NCBI GenBank assembly: GCA_903939845.1
Contig: CAJAIJ010000018.1
Coordinates: forward strand, 1-64,000
Direction: 5' to 3'
DNA: 64,000 nucleotides
Source: an uncultured Solirubrobacterales bacterium
GTDB taxonomy: Bacteria > Actinomycetota > Thermoleophilia > Solirubrobacterales > 70-9
Position numbers and translations under genes: made by a program. Positions 36,981 to 44,639 of this stretch are shown here, in pieces. The first letter of the stretch is position 1; the number at the start of each line of letters is the position of its first letter. The notes beneath the pieces were generated by a model, which made no database searches, was not told where the DNA came from, and saw only the letters and a program-made list of their open reading frames with translations.

Positions 36981-39830
36981 TCAGGGCACCACAACCACGG
37001 CAACCGGGCGAGAGGCCGAGGGAGCGAAGGGCCAACCGGCCTCCCCGAGGGATAGGGCCCTGAAGAAAATCTGCTGACGGGACGTGATCGTCCTGAAGCG
37101 GTAGGTGAAAGCGAAGGCGCCCGATTGACTGCTGTTGACGATCTCGACCGGTCGCCACGACCGACGGGACGGATCGAAGTACTGGATCACGATCTTCTTG
37201 CCCCCCGGCGGCACGGTCATTCCGGGGCCCGACACCGACCCCACCATCCGAGTTGGAACCCGGTTCCTCGTGACCCGATCTCGAACGGAGAAACGGACTC
37301 GATCGGCGAACGAGAGCGACACCCAACGGGAAGAGGTTCGGCCGTTCAGGCGATCCCCGGAGAAGGTAGCCCTGACTCGACGGGAGGGCCCTTCCGGGAG
37401 CTGGATCGAGAAGGATCCGTCTTCGGCGACCTGCACGGTCGTCTTCCGTTCCGGGAGCCCGGATCCCTGAGGGAATGACTCCTCGACCGTCACCAGGGCA
37501 TCACGATCGAGTCGACCGGATGAGACGGAGAGTCGCCCGAAGAGTGCCGCCCCAGAGCTTCCGACTACCGCCGGGGAGCGGGTCCCGGCCTCATCGGCCA
37601 CTTGGAGCGAAAGGGTGGCCGACGACTTCAGCGGCAGTCGGAGGGGAGTGCTGGAGATCGAGACCTCTCGATTTCCGGCTCCATCGATCGCCTCGGCCCG
37701 AATTACGTATTCACCGGGTGGAAGGTCGTCCGAAGGAATCAGTGCCTCCAGTCTGTCCGACTTCATGGTCGTGGCAAGAGTTCGAAAGTCCGCCCGGGCA
37801 CCCTTCGGTCCGATCGAGAGTTCGCCATCAGCGAGACCCGATGCCTCGTCATCGACCAAGGCGACCACCCTCTCGGGGTCGAGCGGATCGACCGACGGGC
37901 TGAACCTCACGGATGGCGGAGTGGAGTCGATCCTGACCACCGTCCTGTCGGGCCTCTCACCCGCCGTCCCGTTGCGCCTGGTCGAGTTCCCGGCGAGATC
38001 TCTTGCGAAATACTCGACCTCTGTCACTCCTTCCCGGGTCACGGTCAAGCTCGAGCTGTCTCCCACTTCGACCTGCGGTTCCAGCCCGGCAACCCCGACC
38101 CCGGTGATAGGGACGTCGCCATCCATCGGATCGGGCGCCATTCCGGAGAGCCTGTCGGTCGAGACCGCCGTAAGGGTCACGGGTCGATCCGACCACTCTG
38201 CCGAATTGCCTTCGAGCCGCACCGTCGGGTCGGTGAGGTCGACCCTGACCCTCGTCACACCGGGATTCCTCGAGGGGATCATGGCTCCCGAGACCGCCAC
38301 GGCCGAGACCGTGTTCTCGCCCTCGACCAGACCATCGAGCAGGGCCTGACCTTCGTTCGGACCTCCGAGCCAGGAGAGCTCGGAGAGCCTGCAGATACTG
38401 CCTCGGCAGGGCGGCCGGACGCCGAGATCGGAGCTCGTGACGGCGAAACCTGCGATCCCGGAGGGGCCGGAACCAGAAGCCTGGATCACAGACTGGGAGA
38501 GCGGGAGCTCGGAGCGAGAGACCCACCCGGGTCGAGCGGCAGGGGTCACGTCGGGCGGGGGCCGGTCATCGAACCTGACCTGTGTGTTCGCAGTCGCCCC
38601 GGCATTGCCGGCCGCATCGATCAGGCCGACCTCGAGCCTGTAGCTGCCGGGCTCCGGGAACGGAATCTCTCTGGCCTGGTCGCCCTCGCTTGCATCAGAG
38701 GGCATCGTGTCGGTGGCCACTACCTGCCCGGTCGCAACGCTCCTCAGCCGGTAGAACGCTTTGCTGAGGGGTGACCCGGAATCCTCGGGAAGGGACCAGC
38801 CCGCGGTGAAACGGTCCCGGGAGGTCCAGCCCGGTCCCGGATCGGTTTCGAGGTCGAGAGGCGGTGGCGGTGGCCTGCGGTCCACTCTGAGCTCGACTCT
38901 TTCGGTGCAGCTCTGATTGCCCGTGCCTGCGACGGAGGAAAAGTCGACCGCACAGGCACGGATGCCGTTGACTCCCTCCCTGAATGGCGGCTCTGAGGTT
39001 TCGAACGTGCCCGACTGGATTCGAGCGGCAGGACATGGCGAAAGCTCGGCCGCCTGCCCGTCGATGATCCCGGAGCAGGCGATTCTGGGAGTAGCGACCG
39101 GAAATCCGTTTACGAGGAAGTAGAGATCGGCCACTCCCGTCCCACTATCCCTGGCCGCGGCTGTCCAGCCGGGCCACTCCCGCGCCCACTCCTTTCGCAA
39201 CGAGAGCTCGGCGACATCACCGGTGATGTCCACCGAAGGAGGCGTTCCATCCCGCCCGACTATTTCGAGCCGATCCATCTGGATGAAGGCCTTGACCGAG
39301 TCCGGCCGGTTGGGACAGCCGCCCGAGCGATCACAGGAGAGCGTGAGCCCCAGCGACGAAGCGGTTGCACCGGCGGGTGGCCAGACGAAGGTGGCAACAG
39401 AGCCGTCGAGATCGGATCCGCCCAGAACCTTCTCCTCCACACCCCCCGACTTCCCGACGAGCGAGGTCCGGATGCCGTTTGCATCCTTCATTCTGACCCG
39501 ACCGGTCACTTCGACCATCGAGACTTCCGGCGGGGCATCCCAGATCATCCTCCCGCCCTGCCCGAAGCCTGCCGAAGCGCCGTCACGATCCTGGTAGAGA
39601 CCGACAACTCCGTTACCGGCCGCGTGACAGCCGGCCACGAGGTGGAGCCATGGCCCGGCTCCGGAATCCGTGAACTGAGCAGGGAGGCGAGCAACCGAGG
39701 TGCCGGGACAGAGCTTGGCCGTAACCTCGCCTGCCGAGGCAGGGGTTGGTCGAGCGAAGAGCCCGGCCGCGAAGGTCAACAGCAAGAGCAGAGCCAAGAC
39801 TCGGACCCGAGTAGAGGTGGAGAAGTTCAT
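36981..39830 (-). CDS. Large secreted protein with Ig-like repeats
   Basis: A 949-aa exported protein with a clear Sec signal (basic NFSTSTRVR, hydrophobic core, cleavage near PTPASAG). The mature chain begins with a lectin- or jelly-roll-like region up to about 190, then a series of Ig/fibronectin-like beta modules with recurring phrases (DGTPPSVDI, DRRPPPPPLDL, DLTDPTVRLEGN, IDSTPPSVRFSPS). No catalytic motif is visible. Cysteine pairs in the first half suggest disulfides. I prefer ATG 39830; a TTG at 39851 overlaps the stop codon of the upstream sigma gene (TTGA). Either way the gene directly follows the sigma/anti-sigma fusion on one transcript. Confidence 0.8.
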   Translation of the reverse strand: MNFSTSTRVRVLALLLLLTFAAGLFARPTPASAGEVTAKLCPGTSVARLPAQFTDSGAGPWLHLVAGCHAAGNGVVGLYQDRDGASAGFGQGGRMIWDAPPEVSMVEVTGRVRMKDANGIRTSLVGKSGGVEEKVLGGSDLDGSVATFVWPPAGATASSLGLTLSCDRSGGCPNRPDSVKAFIQMDRLEIVGRDGTPPSVDITGDVAELSLRKEWAREWPGWTAAARDSGTGVADLYFLVNGFPVATPRIACSGIIDGQAAELSPCPAARIQSGTFETSEPPFREGVNGIRACAVDFSSVAGTGNQSCTERVELRVDRRPPPPPLDLETDPGPGWTSRDRFTAGWSLPEDSGSPLSKAFYRLRSVATGQVVATDTMPSDASEGDQAREIPFPEPGSYRLEVGLIDAAGNAGATANTQVRFDDRPPPDVTPAARPGWVSRSELPLSQSVIQASGSGPSGIAGFAVTSSDLGVRPPCRGSICRLSELSWLGGPNEGQALLDGLVEGENTVSAVAVSGAMIPSRNPGVTRVRVDLTDPTVRLEGNSAEWSDRPVTLTAVSTDRLSGMAPDPMDGDVPITGVGVAGLEPQVEVGDSSSLTVTREGVTEVEYFARDLAGNSTRRNGTAGERPDRTVVRIDSTPPSVRFSPSVDPLDPERVVALVDDEASGLADGELSIGPKGARADFRTLATTMKSDRLEALIPSDDLPPGEYVIRAEAIDGAGNREVSISSTPLRLPLKSSATLSLQVADEAGTRSPAVVGSSGAALFGRLSVSSGRLDRDALVTVEESFPQGSGLPERKTTVQVAEDGSFSIQLPEGPSRRVRATFSGDRLNGRTSSRWVSLSFADRVRFSVRDRVTRNRVPTRMVGSVSGPGMTVPPGGKKIVIQYFDPSRRSWRPVEIVNSSQSGAFAFTYRFRTITSRQQIFFRALSLGEAGWPFAPSASRPVAVVVVP

Positions 39831-39847
39831 GTCGACGCCCGGCACTG

Positions 39848-41227
39848 TCAAGGCTGGAACTCCCCGGACAATGGTGTGGAAGCGGGGCGCTGCGATTCGA
39901 CCCTCGGGGTCGGCGGGGGCGTCGGGGCCGCAGCAGGCACGGGGACCGGCGCACCGGCGCCCTCAGGGGCGAACTCGGTCGCCACCGGCTCGGGCGGTTC
40001 GGTTTCAGCCGGAACGCTCGGCCGTTCCGACGACGGCTCGACCCGGTTGGGGGTCGTATCGGTGTCAGGTCGACCTGACACCGGGGCAGGGGTTGGATCG
40101 ACCGTTAGCCGGGGGCCGACCTGCTCGACACGCCTTTCGATCGTCCGGGCCGGGGGTGGCATCTCCGAGTTCTCCATCGGCACTGGAAGGACCCCCGCGG
40201 CCACACATGCGGCAGCCCCTCCGGCCGTCCCGACACAGATAGCAGTCAACTTGGCCAGCCCCGCCGCGCCGGCTCCTCGTATCCCACCCGAGGCAAGCGT
40301 TGCCCCGAGCCCGGCATCCTGTCCCGGAAGCAGGGCGCTCGCCCTGGTCCAGATCGCCGCGACGAGCCCGTCGACCCACTCGGCGACACGCCCGGAGATT
40401 CCCTCAGGTGCGATATCGCTCGCGACCGGTGCGCCCGGAGCCAATGCAGCGACTCTCGACGGGATCGACCGGTATTCCCGAAGGGTCGCCCGGCACGAAC
40501 CACAGACGGCAAGGTGGTTGCGGACGGTCGCCACCTCTTTGGCATCGAGTTCACCATCGGCGCAGGCCGAAATGAGGGGGACGACCGCTTCACAACGCTT
40601 GCCGGCTTCGGATTCCTCGACCACCGACCTCAATCTCGCTCTTCCTTCGGCGAGGCATCTGTTGACTTTGGTCCGCGTCCAGCCGTTGATCGCACCTATC
40701 TCTGCATACGAGTAACCATGGGCGAGCTGGGTAAGGGCCTTCAGTTCCTGTGGCTTGAGAAGGGCCAGGGCCTCGCGACCACGCTCGATCCTCTCGCGGC
40801 GCACGACCAGCTCCGAGGGTCCATCGGAACCGGAAGGCAGGTCCGCGACCCAGTCCCGATCTCCCTGACCGTCTCCATGGGGATCCGGTGCCGGGCGAGC
40901 CAGAACCCTTTCGCGACTTCGTCTGATCGCCAGAGCCTCGTTGCGCACGACCGTTCGGGCCCAGGGCAGAAGGCGTCTGGCGTCTGCAGTCGGAGCTTTC
41001 AGAAGCAGGATTTCGATCCCGCGCTGGACTGCATCCTCCGCGTCATCCGAACAGATCGAAACCCGACGGGCGCTGGCCCTCAGCTGGGACTCGTGATCGC
41101 GAACGAGTTCGACCGCAACCCGCCGCCGCTCGGCCGGAGTCGGGGCGTCGCTCCCGGCCCAGCCTTCCGATGCCGCGTGATCCCGGCCCGGTGTTTCTCC
41201 TCGTTCGACCTTTTCAGAAACTCCCAC
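39848..41227 (-). CDS. ECF sigma factor fused to a zf-HC2 anti-sigma-like domain with possible membrane anchor
   Basis: A 459-aa fusion. Residues about 38-105 are sigma-70 region 2 and about 145-200 region 4 (helix-turn-helix GYSYAEIGAINGWTRTKVNR). Residues about 212-250 have the zinc-binding anti-sigma pattern (C222, H238, C242, C245 in NHLAVCGSC). A hydrophobic, Ala/Gly-rich stretch (about 323-348) may cross the membrane, and the last 110 residues are Pro/Glu/Thr-rich and disordered. A sigma factor carrying its own inhibitor and anchor would need release to act. The GTG at 41227 is preferred because GGAGGG lies 5 nt upstream; a TTG at 41269 is also in frame. It is followed by the large secreted protein. 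Confidence 0.82.
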   Translation of the reverse strand: MGVSEKVERGETPGRDHAASEGWAGSDAPTPAERRRVAVELVRDHESQLRASARRVSICSDDAEDAVQRGIEILLLKAPTADARRLLPWARTVVRNEALAIRRSRERVLARPAPDPHGDGQGDRDWVADLPSGSDGPSELVVRRERIERGREALALLKPQELKALTQLAHGYSYAEIGAINGWTRTKVNRCLAEGRARLRSVVEESEAGKRCEAVVPLISACADGELDAKEVATVRNHLAVCGSCRATLREYRSIPSRVAALAPGAPVASDIAPEGISGRVAEWVDGLVAAIWTRASALLPGQDAGLGATLASGGIRGAGAAGLAKLTAICVGTAGGAAACVAAGVLPVPMENSEMPPPARTIERRVEQVGPRLTVDPTPAPVSGRPDTDTTPNRVEPSSERPSVPAETEPPEPVATEFAPEGAGAPVPVPAAAPTPPPTPRVESQRPASTPLSGEFQP

Positions 41228-41597
41228 GGGGGCCCTCCGAGCACCTTCCCGATTTCCCAGAACGTGCAACCCCCGCGCTCGTCAACACCGAGAAGTGGCG
41301 AGGTCGCGGTCGAGCGAAACGACAATGTGCCCGGACTGGCCCGATACACGAAGAGAACGACTTGTCCGAAGATCGTGTCATTTCCCTTTCATAGGCCGAA
41401 ACGGAGATGAACTCTCCCCCACCCACTGATGGCCTAATTACGTAAATAGCGACCTTTTTTCAAAGTCATGCAAATAGCGTGAACTTTTCCCGGTCAAGTC
41501 CTGTGGCCCAGGCAGAAGCTCCCGTCTCCGGGGCCGATCGGTTGCAGCGAAATGACGGCGAGGGCGGAAGGTCGGGCCTCCAATACCATCGCTGACG
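41228..41597. other. 370-bp divergent intergenic region with an AT-rich island
   Basis: The stretch between the sigma-fusion gene and the UXS gene has no convincing coding frame. Around 41430-41490 it is unusually AT-rich and holds a direct repeat AAATAGCG (41444-41451 and 41472-41479, 28 bp apart), the palindrome TTACGTAA (41439-41446) and a T6 run. This is a likely promoter/operator zone for the sigma operon, but no clear -35/-10 pair could be assigned. CCCGTCTCCGGGGCCG at 41521-41536 repeats the hairpin core of the 36.9-kb array. Confidence 0.4.
41584..41589 (+). promoter_or_regulatory. Leaderless -10 box of the UXS gene
   Basis: TACCAT, then 8 nt, then the ATG at 41598; no Shine-Dalgarno between. 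Confidence 0.55.
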
Positions 41598-42545
41598 ATG
41601 AGCACCTGCATAGTCACCGGAGGAGCCGGCTTCGTCGGCTCCCATCTCTGCGACCACCTGCTGGCCCGGGGCCACCATGTGATCTGCATCGACAACCTCG
41701 ACACCGGATCGCTGAGGAACATCGACCACATCGAGTCCGACCGGTTCCAGTTCCTGAATCTCGACGTCACCGAGAAAGTCTGGATAGAGGAGGACGTGGA
41801 CTTCGTCTACCACCTCGCATCCCCCGCCAGTCCGATCGACTACCTGCGGCTACCGCTTCAGACCCTCAAGGTCGGCGCCCAGGGCACCTGGCACATGCTC
41901 GGGGTGGCCAAGTTCAAGCGGGCCCGGTTCCTGCTGGCCTCGACCTCGGAGGTTTACGGCGACCCCCAGGTCCACCCCCAGCCAGAGGAGTACTGGGGCA
42001 ACGTGAACCCGATCGGGCCGCGAGGGGTCTACGACGAGGCGAAGCGTTACGCCGAAGCTTTGACGATGGCCTACCACCGCCAGCAGGGCGTGGACACCGC
42101 GATCGTGAGGATCTTCAACACCTACGGACCGAGGATGCGTCCGCACGATGGGCGGGCAGTTCCGACCTTCCTCCGTCAGGCCCTGCTTGGTCAGGACCTG
42201 ACGGTCTTCGGGGACGGCAGCCAGACCCGGTCCTTCTGTTACGTGGACGACCTGGTCGAGGGCCTGATCGGCCTTGCCGAATCGGAAGAGCACCTGCCCG
42301 TCAACATCGGCAACCCGGACGAGTTCACCCTGAAGGAGCTGGCCGAGAAGGTGATCGAGGCGACCGGAGCCGATTCGGGCATCGTCTACGAGCCGCTGCC
42401 GACCGATGATCCCCAGGTCCGCAGGCCCGACATCACGAGGGCCCGAGAGATCCTCGACTGGGAGCCGAGCACCGCGCTGGAGGACGGCCTCGCGAAGACC
42501 GTCGAGCTCTCCGGCGTGGACGGCCTGGTCGGCCGGGCAGACTGA
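41598..42545 (+). CDS. UDP-glucuronate decarboxylase (UDP-xylose synthase)
   Basis: A 315-aa extended SDR. The Rossmann motif is GGAGFVGSH and the catalytic Tyr-Lys is in [11 protein letters not shown]. The blocks [25 protein letters not shown] and VNPIGPR are diagnostic for UDP-xylose synthase, which converts UDP-glucuronate to UDP-xylose, rather than for dTDP-glucose dehydratases. The C-terminal [16 protein letters not shown] is also typical. UDP-xylose or its 4-keto intermediate feeds surface glycan synthesis. The next gene, 54 bp on, is a second nucleotide-sugar reductase-like enzyme. Confidence 0.92.
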
Positions 42546-42599
42546 ACGTCGGCCCGAAGGCGAGGAGGATCGGGCCGTGACCGGGACTCGGGAAACAGA

Positions 42600-43484
42600 A
42601 TGAAGGTCCTGCTGACCGGCGCCGGCGGCTTCCTCGGCGGGGCCCTCGCAACCGAGCTGGAGGCCAGGGGGCACGAGATCTCAGGGCTCGGGTTGAGCGG
42701 ACGGGGCGGGTGGCCCGCCGTTGACCTCACCGATCCCGGTGCGGCTGCGGAGGCAGTCCGCCAGAGCTCACCCGAGATCGTCGTCCATATGGCCGGGCAG
42801 CCGTTGCCGGCAGCGGCGGAGGCCGATCCGGACGGAGCCTTCCGGGCGAATGCCGCCTCTACCTGGAACCTGCTGGAAGCGGTATCGGTCCAGGCCCCCA
42901 GGGCCTTCTTCGTGCTCGGCTCCAGTGCGGCGGTCTACGGCCGGCCCGACCCGGCCATCGCCGGTCGGGTGTCGGAGGAGGCGCCGGTCGAGCCGATCTC
43001 GATCTATGGGGCCTCGAAGGCCGCGGCAGAGATGGTCACCGGTGGCTACGGGGCTGCCGGAAGCCCGTCGGTGGCGATCCTGAGAACCTTCAATCTGGTC
43101 GGCCCGGGACAGCGCAAGGGCGTCGCGGCAGACCTCGTCGCGGCAGCCAGGGATGGTCGTGGGGTCCATGCGGCGGCCCACAACCCGTCCGCAACGAGGG
43201 ACTTCACCGATGTCAGGGATGCCGCAAGGGCGATCGCGCTGGTGGCCGAAACAAGGGCGAAGGGCACCTACAACCTGTGCAGCGGCTCCGCGGTCCGCAT
43301 CTCCGAGCTGGCCGATGTCGTGGTGGCAACGGCAGGTGTCGGGAGTGACGGGCAGGTGACGAGCGGGTCCGACCGATCCGAGGACATCCTGGTGGGCGAC
43401 CCGACGAAACTTCAGGAAGCGGTTGGCTGGCAGGCTGGGATCCCATTGGCCGAAAGCCTCGAGGCGATGCTGGCCGAGTCCTGA
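42600..43484 (+). CDS. NAD-dependent epimerase/dehydratase (GDP-4-keto-6-deoxymannose reductase-like)
   Basis: A 294-aa extended SDR with the Rossmann motif TGAGGFLGG, HMAGQPLP, a catalytic Ser in LGSSAAVYG, and Tyr-Lys in IYGASKAAAE. FNLVGPGQ and the DFTDVRD block resemble Rmd, the reductase that makes GDP-D-rhamnose from GDP-4-keto-6-deoxymannose. The assignment rests on overall resemblance, and other nucleotide-sugar substrates are possible. It lies between UXS and a convergent polyprenol-phosphate glycosyltransferase, so a role in envelope glycan precursors is likely. Confidence 0.82.
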   Translation: MKVLLTGAGGFLGGALATELEARGHEISGLGLSGRGGWPAVDLTDPGAAAEAVRQSSPEIVVHMAGQPLPAAAEADPDGAFRANAASTWNLLEAVSVQAPRAFFVLGSSAAVYGRPDPAIAGRVSEEAPVEPISIYGASKAAAEMVTGGYGAAGSPSVAILRTFNLVGPGQRKGVAADLVAAARDGRGVHAAAHNPSATRDFTDVRDAARAIALVAETRAKGTYNLCSGSAVRISELADVVVATAGVGSDGQVTSGSDRSEDILVGDPTKLQEAVGWQAGIPLAESLEAMLAES

Positions 43485-43509
43485 GCCCGGGACCGAACCG
43501 GCCGGAGGT

Positions 43510-44499
43510 TCAGGCCTCTACCCGGGAGTCGTCCCGGTCGGCCGACACGCCGATCAGAGCCGATACAAGCGCATGCTCGACCGCGGCACCCGAGGCCTCG
43601 CGTCGATTCAGCACCATGATCTGGGCGAGGAGCCCGAGTGAGAGGAGCTGCACCCCGACCACGATCAAAAGGACTCCGAGGAAGAGCAGAGGCCGGTCCC
43701 CGATCGAGGTGCCTCCGATCCAGATCGCGGTCAGATAGAGGCTGATCGCGATTCCGAGGATCACGAGCACCGCCCCCAGACCGCCGAAGAGATGCAGTGG
43801 CCGGTTCTGGTAGCGGCCGAGGAAGAAGACCGTCACCAGGTCGAGCGCACCCCTGAGGTAGCGCTCGAGCCCGAACCGGGACTTCCCGAACTGGCGGGCG
43901 CGGTGGTTGACCGGAACCTCGGTCACGGTCCAGCCCTGCTGGTCGGCAAGGACCGGCATGAACCGGTGCATCTCGCCGTAGACCTCGATCGAACGGGCAC
44001 AGTCGCCTCGATAGGCCTTGAAGCCGCAGTTCATGTCATGCATCCGGACACCGGTCATCAGGCTGGTGAAGCCGTTGAAGACCTTCGATGCGAGCCGGCG
44101 AGTCCATGGATCCTGACGATCCCGCTTCCAGCCCGAGACCAGGTCGTATCCCTCGTCGATCTCGGCAAGGAGTGCCGGAATGTCGGCGGGGTCGTCCTGC
44201 CCGTCACCGTCGATCGTGATGATGAGCCTGGAATCGGTCGAGTCGAACCCGACCGCCAGAGCTGCCGATTTGCCGAAGTTACGCCTGAGGCCGACGCAGC
44301 CGAGGCGATCGTCCGTAGTGGCGAGTTCGGCGATCAGCTCGGGGGTGCCGTCGGAGGAGCCGTCGTCGACGACGACGATCTCGTAGTCGAGCCCGAGCGG
44401 CCCGCAGGCGGCATGGATCTCCTCGATCAGGCCCGGCAGAGCCTCGCTCTCGTCGTAGGCCGGGATAATCACCGTCAGGTCTGCAGCACTCATTCCCAT
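43510..44499 (-). CDS. Membrane GT2 polyprenol-phosphate glycosyltransferase (ArnC/GtrB-like)
   Basis: A 329-aa family 2 glycosyltransferase with VIIPAYDESEA, VDDGSSDGT, the metal-binding TIDGDGQDDP and NCGFKAYRGD. Two C-terminal transmembrane helices (about 230-255 and 267-292) follow, as in ArnC, GtrB and DPMS-type enzymes that load a sugar onto undecaprenyl phosphate at the membrane. A 35-residue cytoplasmic tail is extra. It is convergent with the UXS/reductase pair (25 bp), so it may use their product. The ATG at 44499 is chosen to fit the family N-terminus; the ATG at 44493 is two codons downstream. Confidence 0.88.
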   Translation of the reverse strand: MGMSAADLTVIIPAYDESEALPGLIEEIHAACGPLGLDYEIVVVDDGSSDGTPELIAELATTDDRLGCVGLRRNFGKSAALAVGFDSTDSRLIITIDGDGQDDPADIPALLAEIDEGYDLVSGWKRDRQDPWTRRLASKVFNGFTSLMTGVRMHDMNCGFKAYRGDCARSIEVYGEMHRFMPVLADQQGWTVTEVPVNHRARQFGKSRFGLERYLRGALDLVTVFFLGRYQNRPLHLFGGLGAVLVILGIAISLYLTAIWIGGTSIGDRPLLFLGVLLIVVGVQLLSLGLLAQIMVLNRREASGAAVEHALVSALIGVSADRDDSRVEA

Positions 44500-44639
44500 A
44501 TCTTGCGGGAACTCTGCCGACTTCGGGGCGCGGTTGCCGTCCGATCCGGCCGGATGGGAGGAAATGACCAGCAGCAACGCCCCGGGAGGCCACTGCCGCA
44601 CCGCAACTAGGCTTGGTCAGTGGTGTTCATGGGTCGATG

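What the first reader, a model, noticed from the sequence alone, without database searches (positions are those of the whole stretch)
36981..41227. ECF sigma factor with built-in anti-sigma domain and anchor, coupled to a giant secreted protein
One 459-aa chain holds sigma regions 2 and 4, a zf-HC2 anti-sigma motif (C222, H238, C242, C245), a candidate membrane segment and a Pro-rich exterior tail. The next gene encodes a 949-aa exported Ig-like protein, either from a TTG overlapping the sigma stop codon or from an ATG 17 bp on. A tethered sigma factor and a surface protein in one operon suggest a self-contained envelope-sensing circuit in which the exported protein is the sensor or the output. 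C-terminally extended ECF groups are known in actinobacteria; this pairing I cannot place.
Basis: partly seen in the sequence, partly recalled or inferred. Interest (0 to 1): 0.7.

Follow-up and report, generated by a model that had tools for sequence, protein, structure and literature searches.

The report
Tethered sigma factor with secreted partner
In a little-studied class of actinobacteria (Thermoleophilia), a gene switch that carries its own brake and appears to be tied to the membrane is inherited together with a large secreted protein, and its outside end carries a conserved C-terminal tag; together they look like a self-contained system for monitoring or remodelling the cell surface.

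Summary
The 459-aa chain (39848-41227, -) joins ECF sigma regions 2 and 4 to a ZAS/zf-HC2 anti-sigma domain, one weakly hydrophobic helix and a Pro-rich tail. The next gene encodes an exported, all-beta, Ig-like protein of about 950 aa. Fusion to a zinc-finger anti-sigma domain is a known kind (ECF48/52/53; IutY works similarly). I found no description of the module itself: (i) the fused sigma is followed by a secreted Ig-like protein in family f1 (15/16 loci), f4 (13/13) and some f2 and sister-order genomes, but in 0/7 f3 loci, so the pairing looks ancestral and sometimes lost; (ii) the sigma's C-terminus ends EFxP-COOH in 44/83 homologues (0.04 expected); (iii) GGGG(A/C)GAG-N17-CTTAG stands before the operon and, in 11 related genomes, before a second secreted paralogue elsewhere, consistent with autoregulation and a small trans regulon. 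Best model: a membrane-tethered sigma/anti-sigma hybrid, released by proteolysis, that drives its own operon and surface proteins. Whether the partner is sensor or output is undecided; I favour output. No experiment exists.

The parts
39848..41227 (-). fused ECF sigma / ZAS anti-sigma / membrane-anchor protein, 459 aa (GTG start; in-frame TTG at 41269 possible)
40907..41107 (-). sigma region 2 (residues ~41-107)
   Evidence: Pfam PF04542 2.5e-8
40631..40777 (-). sigma region 4 (residues ~151-199)
   Evidence: PF08281 sub-threshold, TIGR02937 spans both regions; conserved WTxTKVNRCLxEGR
40493..40594 (-). ZAS / zf-HC2 anti-sigma domain core: C212, H238, C242, C245
   Evidence: PF13490 4.3e-9; invariant in 20 homologues
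40199..40273 (-). candidate single membrane helix (residues 319-343), Arg/Lys on its N-terminal side
39851..40198 (-). disordered Pro-rich tail, predicted exterior, with an internal TEFAPEGAGAPVP copy of the tail motif
39851..39865 (-). conserved C-terminal motif GEFQP-COOH (GEFGP in many relatives)
   Evidence: EFxP at the C-terminus in 44/83 distinct homologues, 0.04 expected; only GEFxP-stop DNA match in the own genome
36981..39851 (-). secreted Ig-like partner, 956 aa from TTG (4-bp overlap with the sigma stop) or 949 aa from ATG 39830
39732..39830 (-). signal peptide of the partner (PASA/GEV)
   Evidence: sequence; helix 9-24 in the model
41390..41419 (-). promoter-like element GGGGAGAG-N17-CTATG

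Best explanation
The gene encodes a sigma/anti-sigma hybrid. Its ZAS domain holds its own sigma regions 2 and 4 inactive, and a single helix anchors the chain with the Pro-rich, EFxP-ended tail outside (inferred from sequence and from known ZAS systems). An envelope signal acting on the tail leads to proteolysis that frees the sigma part, probably by a C-terminal-directed or other site-1 protease and then an M50 site-2 protease (inferred). The freed sigma transcribes from GGGGMGAG-N17-CTTAG its own operon and, in many related species, a second secreted paralogue elsewhere (the shared element is shown; its recognition by this sigma is inferred). The secreted Ig-like proteins are thus first of all the output, cell-surface or exported matrix proteins. 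Because the pair is co-inherited and the tail motif conserved, the operon partner may also bind the tail and set its protease sensitivity (inferred, less certain).
For: Domains and invariant ZAS ligands; helix and disordered tail in the model; conserved C-terminus, kept even in genus g2, where the sigma domain has diverged, and in a sister order. Adjacency f1 15/16, f4 13/13; co-divergence of paralogous pairs; pair-first tree with 6 changes. Promoter-like element at fixed spacing before the operon: 20 loci, chance 0.3% per 700-bp region. Tight pattern in 18 genus genomes: 14 hits against 3 for the reversed control, 9 of them before this operon and 2 before the secreted paralogue. The paralogue has the element in nine genus genomes and in genera g9 and g11. 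A similar GGGGAAA...TTAG pair stands before f2 relatives that lack the partner. The own genome has two M50 proteases and one S41 protease. Precedents: IutY and SCO4117.
Against: No experiment. The hydrophobic segment is weak and topology unproven. M50 and S41 proteases are widespread, so their presence is weak support. The element was first seen by eye in the same loci that were then counted; only the genome scans are an independent test. The own genome lacks the secreted paralogue, so its trans regulon is unknown. In f3 and part of f2 the partner is not adjacent. Unfused relatives of the sigma exist in some f1 genera, so the brake is dispensable there.
Confidence: 0.6

Rival explanations
1. 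The secreted Ig-like protein is the sensor: it binds the conserved tail of the sigma hybrid outside and shields or exposes it to proteases, a one-membrane analogue of cell-surface signalling, in which the FoxA signalling domain protects the FoxR anti-sigma factor.
For: Pair co-inherited, overlapping and co-diverging; tail motif conserved with no obvious other function. A distant relative, G149, carries an Ig-like Big_7 domain in the same chain as sigma, zf-HC2 and a hydrophobic segment. Precedent for tail protection: PMC11637429.
Against: The EFGP tail persists in f3 and f2 genomes without an adjacent partner, so its ligand need not be the neighbour. Paralogous secreted proteins under the same element lie elsewhere, which fits output better. 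The partner diverges much faster than the sigma (49% against 84% identity in one pair of pairs).
Confidence: 0.25
2. The pairing is only co-transcription: the sigma answers to a signal unrelated to the partner, and the C-terminal motif is a recognition tag for a PDZ or tail-specific protease, not for the partner.
For: Motif kept without an adjacent partner; one S41 C-terminal-processing-type protease in the own genome; Prc acts on IutY and FoxR.
Against: Repeated presence of several co-diverging pairs in f4; adjacency kept across several families and a sister order.
Confidence: 0.3
3. The chain is a soluble sigma factor whose zinc domain senses redox or metal in the cytoplasm, and the hydrophobic stretch is not a membrane anchor.
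For: Weak hydrophobicity, reached by 3% of shuffles; low model confidence there.
Against: An uncharged segment of about 20 residues recurs at this place in the homologues, followed by a Pro/Gly/Ser-rich tail; the described groups of this architecture (ECF48/52/53) have membrane helices.
Confidence: 0.12

Closest known systems
ECF52 group, SCO4117 of Streptomyces coelicolor (PMC5826349)
   Same: ECF sigma + zf-HC2 + membrane region + Pro-rich extension in one chain; activation by proteolysis proposed
   Different: SCO4117 carries a carbohydrate-binding module after the Pro-rich region; here the tail ends in EFxP with no such domain, and a separate secreted Ig-like gene follows. Putative SCO4117 motif CSGYN-17-SRHA, not GGGGMGAG-N17-CTTAG
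ECF48 and ECF53 groups (review PMC8999054)
   Same: actinobacterial sigma factors with fused zinc-finger and membrane segment
IutY (ECF243) and FoxI/FoxR/FoxA cell-surface signalling (PMC8999054, PMC11637429)
   Same: IutY is a sigma/anti-sigma hybrid working with a surface protein and freed by Prc and RseP proteolysis
   Different: Gram-negative, TonB-dependent transducer partner; here a ZAS anti-sigma domain and a secreted Ig-like partner
RsrA-type ZAS anti-sigma factors
   Same: C-x25-H-x3-C-x2-C ligand spacing (RsrA spacing from memory)
   Different: here fused behind the sigma factor and followed by a predicted membrane segment

Membership tests
ECF sigma factor | sigma regions 2 and 4, no region 3 | tested here: met
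   TIGR02937 2.8e-12 above cut-off; Sigma70_r2 above, r4_2 below Pfam cut-off; PDB profile match to SigE chains
ZAS anti-sigma domain (zf-HC2) | C...H-x3-C-x2-C zinc motif | tested here: met
   PF13490 4.3e-9; C212, H238, C242, C245 invariant in 20 homologues
ECF52 | zinc finger, membrane region and Pro-rich extension fused to the sigma | tested here: met
   (membrane region by prediction only)
ECF52 | carbohydrate-binding domain in the same chain | tested here: not met
   no Pfam domain after zf-HC2; tail disordered to its end
ECF48 / ECF53 | sequence membership in the published group | not testable with these tools
   group models not held; the 2021 classification paper is not in the library
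IutY-type hybrid (ECF243) | iron-type anti-sigma and TonB-dependent transducer partner | tested here: not met
   anti-sigma domain is zf-HC2; partner is Ig-like and exported
RIP-controlled sigma factor | release by site-1 and site-2 proteolysis | not testable with these tools
   M50 and S41 proteases are present in the genome, which is permissive only

The most novel reading that the evidence does not exclude
A one-membrane form of cell-surface signalling: a membrane-tethered sigma/anti-sigma hybrid whose conserved C-terminal EFGP tag is read by its own co-encoded, fast-evolving secreted Ig-like partner, multiplied in some lineages into several parallel sigma/partner channels.
Probability: 0.25. 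Interest if true: 0.75.

Novelty: new variant of a known kind. Interest (0 to 1): 0.55.

Why it matters
Fused sigma/anti-sigma factors of actinobacteria are known mostly as domain diagrams. Here is a class-wide family with a genetically linked exterior partner, a short conserved C-terminal motif and a candidate promoter, so signal, cleavage and regulon become directly testable. It also gives a handle on surface proteins of the mostly uncultured Thermoleophilia.

Tried and rejected
They look like a different promoter class, possibly housekeeping or PafBC-like, so I left them out. 2) Filing as ECF52: rejected, no carbohydrate-binding domain. 3) PDB fold search of the partner: only generic Ig/FN3-type arrays with low TM-scores. 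4) Unfused sigma relatives in some f1 genera first looked like interrupted genes; they have natural C-termini and nest inside the fused family. 5) Own-genome regulon: the pattern that matches the window site finds only this operon, and the secreted paralogue is absent.

Full report
WHAT IS THERE. The window lies in contig C18 of a 1.9-Mb genome, 92% complete; named relatives are Solirubrobacterales MAGs, class Thermoleophilia. Family codes f1-f5 are the search tool's; f1 is the window's own. On the minus strand, 39848-41227 encodes 459 aa with ECF sigma regions 2 and 4 and zf-HC2, followed at a 4-bp overlap by an exported Ig-like protein (36981-39851). AlphaFold gives confident sigma2, sigma4 and ZAS regions, a low-confidence lone helix at 319-343 and a disordered tail. 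The partner model is a signal helix plus an all-beta array, mean pLDDT 83.6.

THE PAIR IS AN INHERITED UNIT. A partner-profile hit directly downstream of the fused sigma was found in f1 15/16, f4 13/13, f2 2/6 and f3 0/7 distinct loci, and in 11 of 38 further loci, most of them from the named-genome scan. Genus g2 has the pair with a strongly diverged sigma. In f5, of another order, several fused sigmas have a signal-peptide-bearing ORF next to them, two at the 4-bp overlap. f4 genomes carry several paralogous pairs, and sigma and partner distances correlate (r 0.75, 0 of 10,000 permutations). On a quick tree of 90 rows the pair/no-pair state needs 6 changes, with the f3-type rows without a partner in one clade and the unfused sigmas inside the fused family; some deep rows have very long branches, so the root and the deep order are unsure. 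An epimerase gene like the one at 41598-42545 lies upstream in 16 loci, the window included.

THE TAIL. Of 83 distinct fused homologues with a readable end, 44 end EFxP; shuffling the last 100 residues gives 0.04. Genus members also carry an internal copy, e.g. TEFTPEAAGTPVP. The motif persists where no partner is adjacent, so its ligand is not established.

THE PROMOTER-LIKE ELEMENT. GGGG(A/C)GA(G/A)-N17-CTTAG was first seen by eye upstream of genus and family members. A regex found it in 20 upstream regions, against 0.3% per 700 bp in Markov-shuffled sequence. As an independent test, GGGGMGAG-N17-CTTAK in 18 genus genomes gave 14 hits, 3 for the reversed control: 9 sigma operons, 2 secreted paralogues, 2 radA, 1 other. 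The window has GGGGAGAG-N17-CTATG at 41390-41419, the only hit of the looser pattern in its genome. The ~750-aa secreted paralogue carries the element in 8 genus genomes and in G003, and in G027 and G032 of other genera. Of the 15 loci read, three encode a different secreted type without the element, in three my anchor found no ORF, and in L209 it fell on the wrong place. radA, recJ and ssb matches were set aside. f2 relatives without a partner have GGGGAAA...TTAG at a matching offset. This supports autoregulation; recognition by this sigma is not shown.

MECHANISM. Shown by sequence: fused domains, conserved ligands, conserved tail, gene pair, shared element. Inferred: membrane topology, brake function, proteolytic release, promoter recognition, role of the partner. 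M50 proteases (C29, C57) and one S41 protease (C52) are present. Precedents are IutY, cut by Prc and RseP, and SCO4117, and protection of an anti-sigma tail by a surface receptor domain. A relative outside the class, G149, holds sigma, zf-HC2 and a Big_7 Ig-like domain in one chain, a weak fusion hint that exterior Ig domains can serve such sigmas.

LIMITS. Nearly all relatives are MAGs, some with contigs ending inside the pair. Literature searches covered open-licence papers only; the main ECF classification paper was not held, so an existing group name for this family cannot be excluded.

Noticed in passing
L279 (G040:C1:4341500-4354500): The fused sigma gene is split in a single-contig genome: the N-part ends GWSYTKVN and soon a stop, the C-part with a secreted gene after it lies about 9 kb on; the insert holds a phage-capsid-family ORF (PF05065 5.5e-10) and both junctions share the KVN codons. 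Looks like an element inserted in the sigma4 HTH codons.
   Followed up: partly
L096 (G037:C125:22436-31933): Another relative's sigma reading frame breaks in the same HTH codons, next to a large serine recombinase (Resolvase 1.9e-27, Recombinase 3.2e-13). The sigma gene may be a recurrent integration site, reminiscent of skin in sigK.
   Followed up: partly
L059, L072, L039 (G001 contigs C63, C54, C84): Same-genus MAG with the sigma N-part on one contig and two 83%-identical anti-sigma/partner copies on others, broken near the same codons; the ends suggest an IS-like insertion with a TCTCG duplication and short inverted ends.
   Followed up: partly
upstream of radA, L232-L245: radA in 13 of 14 same-genus genomes has a start-proximal GGGG...CTTA-like string with inner GTCC and a TANNNT -10, a separate promoter class.
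   Followed up: partly
upstream of the sigma operon in genus relatives: GCAATTTGC-like palindromes recur upstream of the promoter-like element, and GCAAATG often follows it; meaning unknown.
   Followed up: no
window 41598-44601: Neighbouring genes are two NAD-dependent epimerases and a family-2 glycosyltransferase, a surface-polysaccharide-like setting.
   Followed up: partly
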